This document shows positions 1 through 41,352 of a DNA stretch of 47,377 bases, piece after piece. The translations under genes were made by a program, and so were the position numbers. The notes beneath the pieces are model-generated. The model searched no databases, was not told the DNA's origin, and was given only the letters and a program-made list of their open reading frames with translations. How positions within the stretch are numbered: position 1 is the first letter of the stretch; each line of letters opens with the position of its first letter. Source of the DNA: Chloroflexota bacterium (GTDB lineage Bacteria; Chloroflexota; Chloroflexia; Chloroflexales; Chloroflexaceae); assembly GCA_030550625.1 (NCBI GenBank), contig JAUQOZ010000384.1:1-47377 (forward strand), in the 5' to 3' direction.

Positions 1-962
<962 letters not shown>

Positions 963-19721: not shown

Positions 19722-20189
19722 ATGAGCGATGTCGAGGGCGCGACAGGACAGGTGATCGAACTGCGTCTGCCAAGCCGGCTAGGGTATGAACGGATCGCGA
19801 TGGATACAGCGGCGGCGCTGGCGCGGCGGATGGGTTTTGCTGATGAGCGGATTGACGCTTTGCGCACTGCTATCGGCGAAGCAGTGACCAATGCTATCGA
19901 GCATGGCAACCAAGCCGATGCAGCGATGAAAGTGGTGGTTGTGCTGACTGTGCGCCCCGATGAGCTGATTATTAGTGTGTCAGATCAGGGGCGGCGGGCG
20001 CTAGAGCTTGAACGGACGAGGACGCGGCCTCATATCGCTGATGCCTTTCAACGCGCTGATAAGGGTGGTTGGGGCATTTGGCTCATGCGTGAATTAATGG
20101 ATGAAGTAGAATTTACCCTAGCGCCGGGCGGTGGGAATCAGGTGCGAATGGTTGTCCATCTTGAACGCTCGCCGGTTGGTGATCAATAA
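19722..20189 (+). CDS. RsbW/SpoIIAB-like anti-sigma serine kinase (GHKL ATPase), first copy
   Basis: 155 aa with a HATPase_c fold: N box GEAVTNAIEHGN (Asn57), G1 region SVSDQG, and G2 region GGWGIWLMRELMDEV. Proteins of this family phosphorylate a STAS antagonist on Ser and/or sequester a sigma factor. It is 11 bp before a second GHKL gene and ~0.5 kb before a STAS gene, so the three form a partner-switching module. G1 lacks the usual DxGxG second glycine (SDQGRRA), so ATP binding may be altered. The target sigma factor is not in the window. Confidence 0.88.
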   Translation: MSDVEGATGQVIELRLPSRLGYERIAMDTAAALARRMGFADERIDALRTAIGEAVTNAIEHGNQADAAMKVVVVLTVRPDELIISVSDQGRRALELERTRTRPHIADAFQRADKGGWGIWLMRELMDEVEFTLAPGGGNQVRMVVHLERSPVGDQ

Positions 20190-20200
20190 GCCGGGACATT

Positions 20201-20632
20201 ATGCAAATCATCCTCCCCAGCATTCTCGGCTATGAAGTGATTGCGCGCGATGCGGTTGCTTCATTGGCTCGACGCTGCGGCATTTCGCCAGAGCGCGTCG
20301 AAGATGTAAAAACGGCGTTGTGCGAAGCGTGTACGAATGCGATTGAACATGGCAATCGATCTGACCCGCAGCGCAAAGTGCAGGTGCTCTGCACTGTGGA
20401 CGAACAACGTTTGGTGATCGAGGTCTACGATGAGGGCGGTTCGTTGCCGATGTTGCCGCGCAAGCCAGTTCAGTGGACGCTTGAGCAGCGCGCTTCATTG
20501 CGAGGGATGGGTCTCATGCTCATTGTTACGCTCACCGATGAGGTGAGTGTCGTGGCTGACCCGAACGATGGCACGTGTATGCGGCTCGTGTTTTACCGCA
20601 ATCTGGCAGGGGACAGCGTGAGCGCATCGTGA
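20201..20632 (+). CDS. RsbW/SpoIIAB-like anti-sigma serine kinase (GHKL ATPase), second copy
   Basis: 143 aa, HATPase_c fold: N box CEACTNAIEHGNRSD, G1 EVYDEGGSLP, and a shortened G2 around RGMGLMLIVTLTDEV. Similar in design to its upstream neighbour (both open with LPS-x-LGYE-x-IA and have TNAIEHGN), so the pair probably arose by duplication. Weak ribosome-binding site (GGGAC). Likely co-transcribed with the preceding and following genes. Confidence 0.88.
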   Translation: MQIILPSILGYEVIARDAVASLARRCGISPERVEDVKTALCEACTNAIEHGNRSDPQRKVQVLCTVDEQRLVIEVYDEGGSLPMLPRKPVQWTLEQRASLRGMGLMLIVTLTDEVSVVADPNDGTCMRLVFYRNLAGDSVSAS

Positions 20633-20669
20633 TACTGCCGGATGATGGTGGATGATTGAGGAGCGATCG

Positions 20670-21038
20670 ATGTTAGAAGATGAGTTGACCGTCAATATTC
20701 GCCATCGCGATGGCGTGGCGATTATCGATCTGATCGGTGATGTGACGACATTCGCCGAAGAGAAGATCAACGGCGCTTACCGGCAAGTAACGGCGAGGGG
20801 CGATCGGTTTATTCTACTCAACTTTCGCCAAAACGATTATATTAATAGTGCTGGGATTGCCATTCTGATCGGGATTGTCACCGAAGTGAATCAGAATGGG
20901 CAGAAGTTGGCGGTCAGCGGGTTGTCGCCTCATTTCCAAAAGATTTTTCGCATGGTCGGTTTGGCGCAATATGCCGAAATCTATCAGACCGAGGAAGATG
21001 CGCTCAGCGCGTTTAAGCGCCTAGGGGCAGTGGAATAG
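20670..21038 (+). CDS. STAS-domain anti-sigma factor antagonist
   Basis: 122 aa single STAS domain of the SpoIIAA/RsbV kind. The conserved phosphorylatable serine is Ser60 in DYINSAGIAIL; the strands VAIIDLIGDVTTF and KLAVSGLSPHFQKIF match the fold. The ATG at 20670 has GAGGAG (20658-20663) with 6-nt spacing and is preferred over the in-frame ATG at 20652. As substrate of the two upstream kinases it would release their bound partner when unphosphorylated. No PP2C phosphatase or sigma factor is adjacent. It is followed by a strong terminator. Confidence 0.9.
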   Translation: MLEDELTVNIRHRDGVAIIDLIGDVTTFAEEKINGAYRQVTARGDRFILLNFRQNDYINSAGIAILIGIVTEVNQNGQKLAVSGLSPHFQKIFRMVGLAQYAEIYQTEEDALSAFKRLGAVE

Positions 21039-34453: not shown

Positions 34454-36985
34454 GTGCGTTGGTGGGCAATAATCACAATCTTGCTCGTGCTGGCCGGAAC
34501 GTGGCGCCAACCGCTGCAAGCGCAACCGCCGTTAGTGCTGATCAACGAAGTGATGCACAATCCCAGCGCCGGCCCAGAATGGGTTGAGCTGTACAATCCC
34601 GGCCCGTTGCCGGTCGATCTGAGCGGCTGGCGGATCGATGACGCCACTATTGGCGGCCCGCATACCCTCATCGTTGAGGGAACGGTTATCTCGCCCGGTG
34701 GCTTGCTTGTGGTGCCATTAACGAGCGCCATCCTGAATAACGCTGATCCCGATCAGGCGCAATTGAGCGATCAAACAGGCCGGATCGTTGATCAAAGCCC
34801 CTTGACCGTCGTCCCGCGTGATCAAACCATTGCTCGCCAACCTGACGGCGAGGCAAACTGGCAGATCGGCGCACCTTCGCCGGGAGCGTGGAATAGTGGG
34901 GAACCACCTGCACCCGCCGCGACGGTGACGAATCCGCCCCCCAGTCCGTCTCCAGTGGAAGAGGGTAGCCCCTCCCCCAGCCCTGCTCCGCCAGAGGAGG
35001 GAAGTGATGCGACGGCGCCTGCCACCGCCACCGCAACGGCGACGAGCGCGGCGCCTGCCACCGCCACCGCAACGGCGACGAGCGCGGCGCCTGCCACCGC
35101 CACCGCAACGGCGACCGCGACCAGCACCGCAACCCCGGTTGCGGCATTCGATCAGGTCATCATCAACGAAATCGCAGCGGCAGGCGAGTATGAGTGGGTT
35201 GAAGTCTACAATCGTGGCGCGAGCGCGGTTGACCTCAGCGGGTGGGTATTAGAGCGGGTGAGTGCGAGCGGGAGTATGGTGCGCCGCGCATTGCCGGCGG
35301 TGATGATCCAACCCGGCGCCTACGTGGTGGTCGAGGTGGCGAAAGGGAGTTTGCCCGACGGTGGGGCCCGCCTCACTCTCTTCTGGGGGCAGACGGCGAT
35401 GAGTGTGCCGGTTGAGTACCCGGCGCTGACGGCGGCTACTGTCTATGCCCGGCGCGAAGATGGCGCTGGGTGGGTGATCAGCACCGAGCCAACGCCGGGT
35501 GAGCCGAACCCGATCCCAGAGCCGGCGGCGACGGCGACGAGCACGCCCACGGCGCCGGCAACGAGCACGGCAACGGCCACCGTGATGGCAACTACAGCGG
35601 CACTCGCAACGGCCACTCCCACGCCCACGGCGACCGCGACTCCGGTTGCGGCGTTCGATCAGGTCATCATCAACGAAATCGCGGCGGCAGGCGAGCATGA
35701 GTGGGTCGAGCTGTACAATCGCGGCACTACGCCGGTTAATCTCACGGACTGGGTGCTTGAGCGGGTGAGTGGCAGCGTCGTGCGGCGTAGTTTGCCGTCC
35801 ATTACGCTCCTACCCGGCGCCTATGTGGTGGTCGAGGTGGCGAAAGGGAGTTTACCCGACAGCGGCGCGCGCCTGACCCTCTTCTGGGGGCAGACGGCGA
35901 TGAGTGCGCCGGTAGAATACCCGGCGCTGACGGCGGCAACCGTCTATGCCCGGCGCGAAGATGGCGCTGGATGGGTGATCAGCACCGAGCCAACGCCGGG
36001 TGAGCCGAATGTGATCCCAGAGGCGACAGCTACAGGAATCCCGCCGGTACAGACTGATGGTACTGAGACACGGGAACCAACGGCGACGCGAGAACCGACT
36101 GCAACCCGCACGCCAACGGCGACGCGAGAACCGACCGCAACTCGCACGCCAACGGCGACGCGAGAACCGACTGCAACCCGCACGCCAACCGCTACTCGCA
36201 CGCCGACCGTCACTCGCACACCCACCGCGACCAACATGCCAACTGCCACCCGCGCGCCAACGGTAACGAAAACTCCCACGGTCACTAAGACGCCAACTGC
36301 GCTGCCAAGCGCTTTGCCAACGCCGTGGCCGGTAGGGAGCATCGTGATCAGTGCGTTGCTGCCAGCGCCGGTGAACGGTGAGAACGAATGGGTTGAAGTG
36401 ACGAGCCGGTCTTCGTTGCCGATCAATCTACGCGACTGGTTTCTGAGCGATGCAAGCGGCCAGCGCCGGTCATTGGCCGAACAGGAATTGGCGCCGGGGG
36501 CAACCGTACGCACTCTGATGACTCGCGCCTTGCTCAATAATGACGGCGATACGGTCATGTTGCACGATCCGTCAGGGACGGTGATCGATACCTTCACATA
36601 TACAGCAGCAGCGGTTGGCCAGATCATTTGGCGTCGCTCAGATGCGAGTCAGCCGAGGAGTGAGCAAACCGGCCCTGATACGCTTTCGCTTGCAGTGCCG
36701 GCAACCGATTCCGCACTCACGCCGGTGATGCTCCGACCGACAGCCGCACCCCGTCCGGCTTCGCTCTTGCCGCGGTCGCCAGCAGCCGCCTATTTGAGCG
36801 CCACGCTTCCACTCCCAACGCCAACCCGCTCGCCTACGGCGGAAGCGGACTGCGCTGATTGCGCGCAACCGGCGTGGCCATGGTCACGGATGGCAGCGGC
36901 AGCGTTAGGCGTTATCGCCTTACTGCTCTTTGTTGCCGAACCAACACCGGCAAAGGCGGCGCAACGCGATCAGGATATGCTATAA
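34454..36985 (+). CDS. Secreted/anchored multi-domain lamin-tail (LTD) protein
   Basis: 843 aa from a GTG at 34454 with GGAG 8-9 nt upstream. Signal peptide MRWWAIITILLVLAGTW. LTD domains, with WVE(L/V)YN...V(D/N)LS/TxW signatures, at about residues 27-150, 230-355, 400-525 and 630-740. Domains 2 and 3 are near-identical at DNA level. Between them lie low-complexity linkers: Ala-Thr (36-bp DNA repeats), Pro-Ser, and Glu-Pro-Thr-Ala-Thr-Arg repeats. A C-terminal hydrophobic helix (WSRMAAAALGVIALLLFV) followed by a charged tail suggests anchoring. LTD domains bind partners or DNA in some secreted bacterial proteins; here surface display or adhesion is inference. Confidence 0.88.
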   Translation: MRWWAIITILLVLAGTWRQPLQAQPPLVLINEVMHNPSAGPEWVELYNPGPLPVDLSGWRIDDATIGGPHTLIVEGTVISPGGLLVVPLTSAILNNADPDQAQLSDQTGRIVDQSPLTVVPRDQTIARQPDGEANWQIGAPSPGAWNSGEPPAPAATVTNPPPSPSPVEEGSPSPSPAPPEEGSDATAPATATATATSAAPATATATATSAAPATATATATATSTATPVAAFDQVIINEIAAAGEYEWVEVYNRGASAVDLSGWVLERVSASGSMVRRALPAVMIQPGAYVVVEVAKGSLPDGGARLTLFWGQTAMSVPVEYPALTAATVYARREDGAGWVISTEPTPGEPNPIPEPAATATSTPTAPATSTATATVMATTAALATATPTPTATATPVAAFDQVIINEIAAAGEHEWVELYNRGTTPVNLTDWVLERVSGSVVRRSLPSITLLPGAYVVVEVAKGSLPDSGARLTLFWGQTAMSAPVEYPALTAATVYARREDGAGWVISTEPTPGEPNVIPEATATGIPPVQTDGTETREPTATREPTATRTPTATREPTATRTPTATREPTATRTPTATRTPTVTRTPTATNMPTATRAPTVTKTPTVTKTPTALPSALPTPWPVGSIVISALLPAPVNGENEWVEVTSRSSLPINLRDWFLSDASGQRRSLAEQELAPGATVRTLMTRALLNNDGDTVMLHDPSGTVIDTFTYTAAAVGQIIWRRSDASQPRSEQTGPDTLSLAVPATDSALTPVMLRPTAAPRPASLLPRSPAAAYLSATLPLPTPTRSPTAEADCADCAQPAWPWSRMAAAALGVIALLLFVAEPTPAKAAQRDQDML
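35015..35122 (+). repeat. Three 36-bp tandem repeats in the LTD gene
   Basis: Units starting gcgcctgccaccgccacc at 35015, 35051 and 35087, exactly 36 bp apart, encoding APATATATATSA. The third unit drifts at its end. In-frame array, typical of copy-number-variable linker coding. Confidence 0.9.
36076..36193 (+). repeat. 36-bp tandem repeats encoding EPTATRTPTATR in the LTD gene
   Basis: GAGAACCGA landmarks at 36090, 36126 and 36162 are 36 bp apart; a degenerate first unit precedes and TP-rich degenerate units follow to ~36310. They encode the Thr/Pro/Arg-rich stalk before the fourth LTD domain. Confidence 0.88.
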
Positions 36986-38120: not shown

Positions 38121-38149
38121 TTGCGCGTAGCGCCGAGCAATGCTACAAT
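38121..38149 (+). promoter_or_regulatory. Promoter of the 38.2-44.8 kb operon
   Basis: TTGCGC (38121-38126), 17 bp, TACAAT (38144-38149) preceded by TGC (extended -10). Start expected ~38156, giving an ~84-nt leader to the small ORF at 38240. Confidence 0.7.
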
Positions 38150-38182
38150 ACGGGAAGCTATATCGTACACCCTACGGATAGC

Positions 38183-38212
38183 AGGGAGGCAAGTTTCGCC
38201 TCTCTGTTTCCT
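38183..38212 (+). terminator. Attenuator-like hairpin in the leader of the small ORF
   Basis: AGGGAGGC (38183-38190), 7-nt loop, GCCTCTCT (38198-38205), an 8-bp stem with one G-U pair, followed by the T-rich GTTTCCTGTTGT. It lies between promoter and first gene, so it may be an attenuator; the T-run is broken. Confidence 0.45.
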
Positions 38213-38239
38213 GTTGTCTGTAAGTGTCATGGGGGCTGC

Positions 38240-38389
38240 ATGGACGCGAAGATGATCGTCTTTGGCGACACGGCTGTTGATCGCTTGCTCCAGTGGCTAC
38301 GAGCGAGCGGCGAGCCGAAAGATGTGCGCGAGTTGCTGGTGCAATACCTTGAGATCTTAAGCAAGCTGGTGATGGAGGAGAGCGAATGA
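38240..38389 (+). CDS. Small protein, 49 aa, overlapping the downstream winged-helix-like gene
   Basis: ATG at 38240 with GGGGG 4 nt upstream; stop TGA at 38387-38389 overlaps the next ATG (38386-38388) as ATGA, a strong sign of a real, translationally coupled gene. The product begins MDAKMIVFGDTAVDRLLQWL, is acidic, probably all-helical after residue ~10, and ends LEILSKLVMEESE. No family recognised. It may partner the 652-aa protein. Confidence 0.75.
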   Translation: MDAKMIVFGDTAVDRLLQWLRASGEPKDVRELLVQYLEILSKLVMEESE

Positions 38390-40344
38390 CCGCCACGACA
38401 GGAACGTTGGCCGATGAAGTATGGCGGCTGATGACCGCGCAAGGAATCCTCTTCGCCGTTGATGCCCCTATCCGCCAGACATTGCAGAATCTGGTCGAGT
38501 TTTTTGCCGCGCGCTGGCAGCGCGATCCTGCGCAGGTGCGCGCCGAACTCGAAGCGGCGCTGGCGGCTGACGAGCGTTTCACCCGCGAGGAGGTCAATGG
38601 TCAAGTTATTTTTGTGACCTCCCGACAAGGGCGTTACGTTCCCCGTGATACGACCGATATCCATACCTTCAAGCAGCGGCTCTATGAACCGGAGAAGCCG
38701 CTGCCGATCGATGATTTGAGCGTCGTGGTTTCGACCTCTCGCCCAGCGATTACGACGGTCGAGCCAGTGTACATTTCCGATTACTGGATCGAGCAGGCCC
38801 GGTTGGTTACGGCCAAAACTGCCGAGCATGAACCGGATGTCGAGACGCCAGCGCCGGTTGAGGCAGCTCCAGAAGTAACACCGGTGGTCGCCGAGCAGCC
38901 AGTTGCAGCGACGGTAACGCCAGTAACCGTCGAATCGCCGCCAGCAGCGCCGATCACTGCCGAACCTGAGGAGGCGCTAGCCGAGACGAAGCCAGTAGCT
39001 GAACCGGTCGAAACTGCGCCGAAGCCAGAGCCGGTGCAGCCTGCTGAACGCAGCACGGTCTTGGTGGTGGAGGGCATAGCTATCGATCTGAGCCGCCCGC
39101 CAGCCGAGATTGTGGCGGAATATGGCCCGGCCCTCGAACGGATTCTAGCCGAGCGGTTGGAACAAGATCCGCTGCGCCGGATCGTCAGCTTTGGCCGGAT
39201 GCATTATCCAGAAGATAAACTGACAAGCTTCGGCAAGAATGATCTGCGCAAGATCCGCGATTACATTCTCGAACGCAACGAGCCGTTGCTTGATACCGAG
39301 ATTGTCGCTGATCTGTATTATCACAATCCCCGCCAGTCTGACTATGAAGGCTTCCGTTTCTCGCTCAACTATCGGTTGTCACGTGAGAAGGATTTTGAGT
39401 TCGTCGGCGTAGAAGGGGCTAATATTTGGTCTACCAAGGGGTTGCCGGCAATTGGCTCGAAGCGGGTGAAAGCGGCAGAGATGGGCCAGTTGACGTCGTA
39501 CCTTATCGAAGGCTTCGATGATAGCCTTGCTGAGCAGAGCGCTGACTCAATTGTGGCTAGCGGCAGCGTCACGCGCTGGCTGACCTTCTTTGAGTGGGAG
39601 TTTGGCGTTCTGCCGCTTGACGCGGCACTGGCGGCGCTGTTGCCGAAGCCGCTCTTCCCCGACCAGCGTAGCGCAGTGCTCCGCTTCGAGTCGCCGCAGC
39701 ACTTTAGCACCTATCTGGTGGAAGTGCGCTATCCAACTGGCAATCGCGGCGGTTGGCTGCAAGGTTTGGAAGATTTCTTCCGCGAGCACCTTGTCCCCGG
39801 TGCGCTGATTACAATTAGCCGCGGCGAGGCCGTTAACGTCTTTACTATTACTTATGAAGAGGCGAGCGAGACGACTGGCCGCCTGTTGACACTGGATGAA
39901 AAGAAGAACAAGTTCGCGTTTGCGAATATGACGTTCTACTGCGCTGTCGATGATGATCTGCTGCCAGAGCAGAATCGTTACGGCAAGCTGCGCAATCTGA
40001 AGGCGTTCCCGATGGGTGAGCGGCGGAAGGCTGAGATGATCCTCGAACACGTCTGCGAGACGATGGGTGAGCGCGGCGGTAGCCGTGAACAGCCGGTGTA
40101 CCGCGTCAGCTTTGCCGACATCTTTATGGCGTACAATGTACTGCGTCCGGCGTCACGCTCTTTCTTGCTGGCGCTCCTCGATAACCATTCGTCGATCGCT
40201 GCTGATCCATCTGCTGATGGTGTCTATCTCTTTACGCCGCAGGTTGAAACTGAGGCCGAAGAAGATGTGGAGGACGAGGATCTGCCTGTGCAGCCAACGC
40301 TGCGCCGTCGCAGCGGTCGTTATATCGAGGATGATGACGAGTAA
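38386..40344 (+). CDS. Unknown protein with two winged-helix-like domains (HARE-HTH-like)
   Basis: 652 aa. Residues ~5-90 (ADEVWRLMTAQGILFAV...ERFTREEVNGQVIFVTSRQG) have the helix-helix-helix-wing pattern of HARE-HTH/RNAP-delta-like domains; ~140-225 is a Pro/Glu/Ala/Val linker; ~265-360 holds a second such pattern (EIVADLYYHNPRQSDYEGF ... VGVEGANIWSTKGLP). The remaining ~290 residues are predicted alpha/beta, with a very acidic C-terminal tail. No catalytic motif seen. It starts inside the stop of the 49-aa ORF. The winged-helix assignment is pattern-based and would need a profile search. I know of no named family. Confidence 0.7.
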   Translation: MTATTGTLADEVWRLMTAQGILFAVDAPIRQTLQNLVEFFAARWQRDPAQVRAELEAALAADERFTREEVNGQVIFVTSRQGRYVPRDTTDIHTFKQRLYEPEKPLPIDDLSVVVSTSRPAITTVEPVYISDYWIEQARLVTAKTAEHEPDVETPAPVEAAPEVTPVVAEQPVAATVTPVTVESPPAAPITAEPEEALAETKPVAEPVETAPKPEPVQPAERSTVLVVEGIAIDLSRPPAEIVAEYGPALERILAERLEQDPLRRIVSFGRMHYPEDKLTSFGKNDLRKIRDYILERNEPLLDTEIVADLYYHNPRQSDYEGFRFSLNYRLSREKDFEFVGVEGANIWSTKGLPAIGSKRVKAAEMGQLTSYLIEGFDDSLAEQSADSIVASGSVTRWLTFFEWEFGVLPLDAALAALLPKPLFPDQRSAVLRFESPQHFSTYLVEVRYPTGNRGGWLQGLEDFFREHLVPGALITISRGEAVNVFTITYEEASETTGRLLTLDEKKNKFAFANMTFYCAVDDDLLPEQNRYGKLRNLKAFPMGERRKAEMILEHVCETMGERGGSREQPVYRVSFADIFMAYNVLRPASRSFLLALLDNHSSIAADPSADGVYLFTPQVETEAEEDVEDEDLPVQPTLRRRSGRYIEDDDE

Positions 40345-40419: not shown

Positions 40420-40440
40420 TATCCTCTATAAGGTATGATG

Positions 40441-41352
40441 ATGACCCCAAGTTTTGCCGAGCGGGTTGCCCAACTTGATGCCACTGAACAGGCTCCGACC
40501 CGCCTCGATCTGAAGCTGCTCGCGAATCTTGGCCCAGAGAGTGTATATATCTTCTGGGAACAGTGGCAGCGGTTTGGTCTTGACCGGCGGCGGCATATTA
40601 TGCGCCTGTTGGCCGAATTAGCCGAAGAACAGGTTCGGCTTGATTATCGGCCAGTGTTTCGCGCTTGTCTCGCTGACCAAGACCCTGAGATTCGGGTGCT
40701 GGCAATCGAAGGTTTGTGGGAAGATGACCACGAGCAGATGATGGATCGGCTGATCCGGATGATTCACGATCCAGCCGGCGAGGTGCGCGCCGCGGCCTTG
40801 CTCAGCCTTGCCCGCTTTGCCTATCGCGCTGAGATTGGCGAACTTGCCCTTGAGGCTTGCGAGCGGCTGCACACGGCGTTGCTCGACGCAGCCGATGACC
40901 CTGAACAGCCGTTAGAGGTGCGGCGGCGGGCGATTGAGGCGCTGGGGTATTTTGCCGGCTCGCGGGAAGCGCAGGCCGCGATCGGGCGGGCCTATAGTAT
41001 GGACGATATCCTGATGCGCGAGAGCGCGGTCTTGGCGATGGGCCGCTCGATGCGACCGAGCTGGTTCCCCTATATCGAGCGCGAGTTGAAAAGCCCCTCG
41101 CCGGCGCTGCGCTATGAAGCGGCGCGGGCCGTCGGCGAGATTGGCGAAGATGGCCGCGAGTTGTTGCCTTCGCTCTTGCCGCTGGTTGAAGATGATGATA
41201 CCGAGATTGCGCTGGCGGCGATCTGGGCGCTCGGCCAAGTCGGCGGCCCCGACGCGCGCCGGATTCTTAAGCGCATCGCCCGGTCGCGTGATGAGACCCG
41301 TGCGCAGGCGGCGCAAGATGCCCTCGCTGAACTCGATCTCGATACCCTCTGA
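40441..41352 (+). CDS. HEAT-repeat protein
   Basis: 303 aa from the third of three consecutive ATG codons (40435, 40438, 40441); AAGG at 40430-40433 is best spaced (7 nt) from the last. Residues ~60-300 are helical pairs with HEAT periodicity: DPEIRVLAIEGLWEDD, PAGEVRAAALLSLARFA, PLEVRRRAIEALGYFA, SPALRYEAARAVGEIGED, DTEIALAAIWALGQVGGPDARRIL. This is a protein-protein interaction solenoid of the E/F-CpeE or condensin-like sort, partner unknown. Six bp precede the next gene, so it is co-transcribed with the PIG-L gene. Confidence 0.85.
   Translation: MTPSFAERVAQLDATEQAPTRLDLKLLANLGPESVYIFWEQWQRFGLDRRRHIMRLLAELAEEQVRLDYRPVFRACLADQDPEIRVLAIEGLWEDDHEQMMDRLIRMIHDPAGEVRAAALLSLARFAYRAEIGELALEACERLHTALLDAADDPEQPLEVRRRAIEALGYFAGSREAQAAIGRAYSMDDILMRESAVLAMGRSMRPSWFPYIERELKSPSPALRYEAARAVGEIGEDGRELLPSLLPLVEDDDTEIALAAIWALGQVGGPDARRILKRIARSRDETRAQAAQDALAELDLDTL

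What the first reader, a model, noticed from the sequence alone, without database searches (positions are those of the whole stretch)
38183..40344. A 49-aa small ORF coupled to an undescribed two-winged-helix-like protein
The 49-aa ORF (38240-38389) ends by ATGA overlap with the 652-aa gene. A TTGCGC/TACAAT promoter and an attenuator-like hairpin precede it. Coupling of a tiny acidic helical protein to a large protein with two HARE-HTH-like domains and no enzyme motif looks like a toxin-antitoxin-like, transcription-regulatory or scaffold pair. I know of no named family for either.
Basis: partly seen in the sequence, partly recalled or inferred. Interest (0 to 1): 0.62.

Follow-up and report, generated by a model that had tools for sequence, protein, structure and literature searches.

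The report
Split DNA-binding protein with B3-like domain
In green non-sulfur bacteria a tiny conserved gene is translated together with a large, unnamed, probably DNA-binding protein; in other classes of the phylum the two are one fused protein, so they are probably two pieces of a single chromosomal DNA-binding machine rather than a toxin and antidote.

Summary
The 49-aa ORF and the 652-aa gene form an ATGA-overlapped pair: 41 of 45 non-redundant loci keep the overlap, and nearly every genome with the large gene has a recognisable small gene. The small protein is under purifying selection. The promoter (TTGCxx-17-TGnTAYAAT) and a leader hairpin, single-copy in this genome, are conserved too. 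Neither protein matches Pfam, NCBIfam, PHROGs or PADLOC.

New here: (i) other classes of the phylum carry one protein whose N-terminus is homologous to the small protein and whose body is homologous to the large protein's C-terminal two-thirds. The small protein is thus a split-off domain, not an antitoxin or leader peptide. (ii) Residues 391-495 of the large protein are predicted to fold as a B3 DNA-binding domain (plant transcription factors, bacterial restriction enzymes); a weak but control-beating sequence signal agrees. (iii) Residues ~282-354 are HARE-like; 1-88 and 545-618 are other winged helices. (iv) A HEAT-repeat gene follows in most loci, down to ~37% identity.

Best reading: a Chloroflexota housekeeping DNA-binding complex (small subunit, B3/winged-helix scaffold, HEAT partner), probably regulatory or nucleoid-associated. 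DNA binding and function are inferred.

The parts
38121..38149 (+). promoter: TTGCGC, 17-bp spacer, extended -10 TGCTACAAT
   Evidence: TTG-15..19-TANAAT in 29 of 45 leaders of relatives, spacer 17 in nearly all; extended -10 in 38 of 45; shuffle mean 0.4 for each. Below the threshold of the simple sigma-70 scan.
38180..38209 (+). leader hairpin AGCAGGGAGGC-loop-GCCTCTCTGTTT, lying in the presumed 5' UTR
   Evidence: consensus structure with 11 pairs, 3 with double changes; single copy of the pattern in own genome; covariance model hits once strongly per genome upstream of the small gene in 30 of 41 family genomes; no Rfam match
38240..38389 (+). 49-aa small protein gene; split-off N-terminal domain of the fused form; its 3' end contains GGAGGAG, a likely Shine-Dalgarno for the large gene
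   Evidence: purifying selection and homology to the N-terminus of fused proteins
38386..40344 (+). 652-aa large protein gene
38386..38649 (+). N-terminal winged helix, residues 1-88 (absent from the fused form)
   Evidence: AF2 pLDDT mostly 80s; winged-helix matches Z 6-8; not HARE-like by sequence
39229..39447 (+). HARE-like winged helix, residues 282-354
   Evidence: structural match to RNA polymerase delta 2m4k Z 7.2 on a low-confidence stretch; profile match to PF05066 domains, 0 of 150 shuffles
39556..39870 (+). B3-like DNA-binding pseudobarrel, residues 391-495
   Evidence: Foldseek: top 24 hits all B3 or B3-like, best E 4e-4; VIA-align Z 11.5 to ARF1, 9.5 to LlaJI.R1; sequence-profile score 22.1 against max 16.2 of 150 shuffles and 16.4 of 33 real controls
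39733..39753 (+). conserved loop residues 450-456 (PTGNRGG), inferred position of the B3 C-arm
   Evidence: P450, R454, G455, G456 invariant in 27 sequences; aligned to the loop before the GW motif of B3
40018..40239 (+). C-terminal winged helix, residues 545-618
   Evidence: confident (pLDDT about 85) in both AF2 models; winged-helix matches Z 7-8
40435..41352 (+). HEAT-repeat protein gene, conserved downstream partner
   Evidence: Pfam HEAT_2 E 1.4e-29; directly downstream in most loci, down to 37% identity in other families of the class

Best explanation
The pair is one DNA-binding protein in two pieces. The 652-aa protein is a multi-domain scaffold (winged helix, long Pro/Ala/Glu-rich linker, HARE-like winged helix, B3-like barrel, winged helix, acidic tail) that binds chromosomal DNA as a regulator or nucleoid-associated factor. 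The 49-aa helical protein is its detached N-terminal subunit, made in step with it by translational coupling, and docks on it. The HEAT-repeat protein encoded next is the likely third partner. The operon is probably regulated through its conserved promoter and leader hairpin, perhaps by its own product. Shown by computation: the gene pair, its conservation, the split/fused homology, the synteny, the leader. Supported by prediction: the B3-like and winged-helix folds. Inferred: DNA binding, docking, autoregulation, cellular role.
For: Pair and ATGA overlap conserved. Large and small profiles co-occur: strong large hits in 40 of 301 genomes, 35 of them with a small-profile hit beside it, and short related ORFs seen upstream in the divergent loci inspected. 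Fused homologues: large core aligns over 349 columns, hhalign prob 99.4; small protein aligns to the N-terminus of the same proteins, prob 89.7, score 31.3 against shuffle maximum 14.5; reciprocal search with the fused protein hits only the large protein in split genomes, down to E 3.5e-12. B3-like fold, HARE-like region, two further winged helices. Housekeeping synteny with HEAT, FemAB and MurE genes. Conserved leader.
Against: No DNA-binding assay or solved structure. AF2 models are poor overall (mean pLDDT 55 and 56, 16 sequences). The core-only model did not reproduce a clear B3 match (best ARF hit E 1.0). Pfam B3 and HARE models do not hit the protein. The predicted N-arm of the B3 region is acidic rather than basic. 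Neighbours (MurE, FemAB) suggest no specific regulatory target.
Confidence: 0.55

Rival explanations
1. The complex works in chromosome maintenance (replication, repair or segregation) rather than transcription: the B3 and winged-helix domains hold DNA and the HEAT protein is a scaffold.
For: HEAT-repeat partner conserved next door; by inspection, some genomes place the pair beside replication, recombination or NAD genes (DnaB-like, RuvC-like, NAD kinase-like ORFs, not profile-checked).
Against: Those neighbours vary between families; no repair or replication motif; no damage-type promoter identified.
Confidence: 0.2
2. An RNA-polymerase-associated factor working like the delta subunit: HARE-like fold plus acidic disordered tail acting on polymerase.
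For: Middle domain is HARE-like and matches delta 2m4k at Z 7.2; acidic C-terminus; no PF05066 match elsewhere in this genome.
Against: Delta has one HARE domain and no B3 or other winged helices; several relatives carry separate PF05066 proteins; low pLDDT in that region.
Confidence: 0.12
3. The small ORF is only a regulatory leader peptide whose translation controls the large gene; its amino-acid sequence has no role of its own.
For: Upstream position, ATGA overlap, Shine-Dalgarno of the large gene inside its 3' end.
Against: Amino-acid conservation across families, pN/pS 0.03-0.15, and existence as a fused domain in other classes.
Confidence: 0.05
4. A toxin-antitoxin pair.
For: Small gene first, overlapping a larger one; DNA-binding domains.
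Against: Single-copy, class-wide, syntenic, fused in relatives, no toxin or PADLOC match; the large partner is 652 aa.
Confidence: 0.02

Closest known systems
Plant B3 transcription-factor domains (ARF1, VAL1, FUS3, RAV1)
   Same: Predicted fold of residues 391-495 (Z 9.5-11.5, about 100 residues, 16-23% identity) and the GL..FF..hLvPG.lI motif aligned with the GW..F....L..GD motif.
   Different: Bacterial; embedded between winged helices; not found by the Pfam B3 model; N-arm not basic.
Bacterial B3-like recognition domains of restriction enzymes (LlaJI.R1, BfiI, UbaLAI)
   Same: Same predicted fold (Z 9.5, 8.1, 6.7).
   Different: No nuclease or methyltransferase family hit in the protein or its conserved neighbours; single-copy housekeeping synteny instead of a defence locus.
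HARE-HTH proteins, RNA polymerase delta subunit
   Same: Middle domain 282-354 resembles the HARE fold; protein also ends in an acidic tail.
   Different: Several other DNA-binding-type domains; no PF05066 hit.
The fused ~530-aa homologues in other classes of the phylum (unnamed)
   Same: Same core and same N-terminal small domain in one chain.
   Different: Carry another segment in place of the first winged helix and linker; also unnamed, no Pfam hit above cut-off.

Membership tests
B3 DNA-binding superfamily | B3 pseudobarrel fold | tested here: inconclusive
   Met on the full-length model (E 4e-4, Z 11.5) but not clearly on the core-only model; model confidence moderate
B3 DNA-binding superfamily | sequence match to the Pfam B3 profile PF02362 | tested here: not met
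   no match at E <= 10 at this locus; a profile-profile signal does exceed controls. Many bacterial B3-like domains are known for low sequence similarity (own knowledge)
B3 DNA-binding superfamily | sequence-specific DNA binding by N- and C-arms | not testable with these tools
   needs binding assays; conserved PTGNRGG loop sits at the inferred C-arm
HARE-HTH (PF05066) | profile match above cut-off | tested here: not met
   no match at E <= 10
HARE-HTH (PF05066) | HARE-like winged-helix sequence pattern | tested here: met
   hhalign score 24.2 against max 19.6 of 150 column shuffles for residues 262-360; weak in absolute terms, prob 32%
B3-type restriction endonuclease | nuclease domain or restriction-modification neighbours | tested here: not met
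   no Pfam nuclease match in 27 members, none in PADLOC, conserved neighbours are ROK, HEAT, PIG-L, FemAB, MurE
Toxin-antitoxin system | patchy, mobile distribution with a toxin domain | tested here: not met
   40 of 41 family genomes, class-wide, single copy, syntenic, fused in relatives
RNA polymerase delta subunit | single HARE domain plus acidic tail bound to RNA polymerase | tested here: not met
   domain architecture differs; polymerase binding not testable

The most novel reading that the evidence does not exclude
A lineage-wide, non-restriction bacterial DNA-binding factor built on a plant-type B3 domain, existing in split (small subunit plus scaffold) and fused forms, and controlling its own operon through a conserved leader hairpin.
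Probability: 0.35. Interest if true: 0.75.

Novelty: new variant of a known kind. Interest (0 to 1): 0.55.

Why it matters
If the B3 call is right, bacteria use this fold in a chromosomal, apparently housekeeping protein outside restriction enzymes, which bears on where the plant B3 transcription factors came from. Independently, it gives a universal but unnamed operon of the Chloroflexota a testable role, and a clean natural case of one protein existing as a coupled split pair in one class and as a fusion in others.

Tried and rejected
Toxin-antitoxin and defence. Leader peptide only. Two HARE domains: the N-terminal domain fails (3 of 80 shuffles reach its score) and so does the C-terminal one (14 of 80). 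PDB profile searches with the whole alignment, the small protein, the B3 region and the HARE region gave no credible sequence match. Viral contigs: no relatives. Core-only AF2 model: no better. Literature searches found nothing on this family.

Full report
What is there. The window lies in a Chloroflexus-like genome (related loci are titled Chloroflexus). The 49-aa ORF at 38240-38389 ends in ATGA, sharing the start of the 652-aa ORF at 38386-40344. The end of the small ORF contains GGAGGAG about seven bases before that start, so the acidic tail of the small protein partly encodes the Shine-Dalgarno of the next gene (direct reading). Neither protein has a credible match in Pfam, NCBIfam or PHROGs or PADLOC.

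Conservation. The large gene was found in 40 of 41 genomes of the family. With profiles, strong matches to the large protein occur in 40 of 301 genomes sampled across the phylum and the small one lies beside it in 35. Of the other five, I inspected three (loci L117, L119, L120): each has a short, divergent ORF just upstream; two were not inspected. Of 45 non-redundant loci, 41 have exactly the ATGA overlap; the exceptions have one-base overlap or short gaps. Against Chloroflexus genomes with 80-88% large-protein identity, pN/pS of the small ORF is 0.03 to 0.15. So the small ORF is a real protein gene.

Leader. TTGCGC-17-TGCTACAAT at 38121-38149 recurs in relatives: 29 of 45 leaders have TTG-15..19-TANAAT and 38 of 45 the extended -10; mononucleotide shuffles give 0.4 on average. 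The hairpin at 38180-38209 folds in a consensus of 23 sequences with three pairs showing double changes; one G-U pair is kept as G-U in 21 of 23. Because covariation is modest, RNA hairpin and DNA inverted repeat are both possible. The pattern occurs once in this genome, and a covariance model gives one strong hit per genome in 30 of 41 family genomes, upstream of the small gene. One genus (G013-G015) lacks it. Rfam has no match.

Split and fused forms. Distant homologues of about 530-620 aa in other families of the phylum (loci L125-L131) align with residues 237-606 of the large protein (hhalign prob 99.4, E 8e-22). Their first ~50 residues resemble the small protein. With the more divergent small proteins added, hhalign gives prob 89.7, E 1.9e-6, score 31.3, where 200 column shuffles reach at most 14.5. 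Searching with a fused protein finds 36 genomes carrying it, two of them only as a partial match, and in split-type genomes its only hit is the large protein. No genome seen has both. The small protein is therefore a domain that is separate in one group and fused in another, which is classical evidence for physical association. The first winged helix and the long linker of the split form are replaced by another segment in the fused form.

Domains of the large protein. The AF2 model is weak overall (pLDDT 55) but has confident parts. Foldseek's top hits are B3 DNA-binding domains: plant FUS3 (E 4e-4), VAL1, ARF1, RAV1, then the restriction enzymes LlaJI.R1, BfiI and UbaLAI. VIA-align puts residues 391-495 at Z 11.5 with ARF1, well above the unrelated rows at 7-8. 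A profile comparison of this region with plant B3 sequences scores 22.1 (prob only 12.5%) but beats 150 shuffles (max 16.2), its own reverse (13.7) and 33 blocks of real neighbour proteins (max 16.4). Against this, Pfam B3 does not hit, and a core-only model did not reproduce the match clearly. I rate the B3 call about 0.7. Residues 262-360 score 24.2 against HARE domains, shuffles at most 19.6; the N- and C-terminal winged helices do not. Both are nevertheless predicted winged helices.

Neighbourhood. The HEAT-repeat gene at 40435-41352 follows directly in most loci, including other families of the class at 37-40% identity, often with PIG-L, FemAB and MurE further on. One group (L048-L053, L135) and some distant families lack it. 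The ROK gene lies upstream in most Chloroflexus relatives. This is a housekeeping setting, not a defence or mobile one.

Verdict. The finding is a conserved, unnamed, Chloroflexota operon whose small and large proteins are two parts of one probable DNA-binding protein. I commit to a regulator or nucleoid-associated factor (0.55), with chromosome maintenance (0.2) and a polymerase-associated factor (0.12) as rivals; toxin-antitoxin is very unlikely. Distribution outside the phylum was tested only by one scan for close relatives, which found Chloroflexota-type records plus one record titled Gracilibacteria that looks mis-binned.

Noticed in passing
L044 (JAAUTF010000214.1): A record titled Candidatus Gracilibacteria carries the large gene at 64% identity followed by the same HEAT, PIG-L, FemAB, MurE order as Chloroflexus relatives; it looks like a mis-binned Chloroflexota contig.
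   Followed up: partly
34454-36985: 843-aa secreted-looking protein with repeated VLINEV..EWVELYN modules (lamin-tail-like by eye) joined by long Thr/Ala/Pro repeats; gene upstream of the ROK gene, conserved in place but repeat-variable.
   Followed up: no
L126-L131: Fused homologues contain a conserved block 'GexLvFPal...GxVvxvRpGxNP..GxFxVixVxfedGxxrxFAA' between the small domain and the core, with no Pfam hit above cut-off; may be an unnamed SH3/KOW-like domain.
   Followed up: no
L028, L030, L047 leaders: One genus lacks the usual leader hairpin but has a different 9-bp hairpin (GCCCTGCTC...GAGCAGGGC) at the same place, again built on AGCAGGG.
   Followed up: partly
19722-21038: Three small ORFs in a row that look by eye like two anti-sigma-type kinases and an anti-sigma antagonist.
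   Followed up: no
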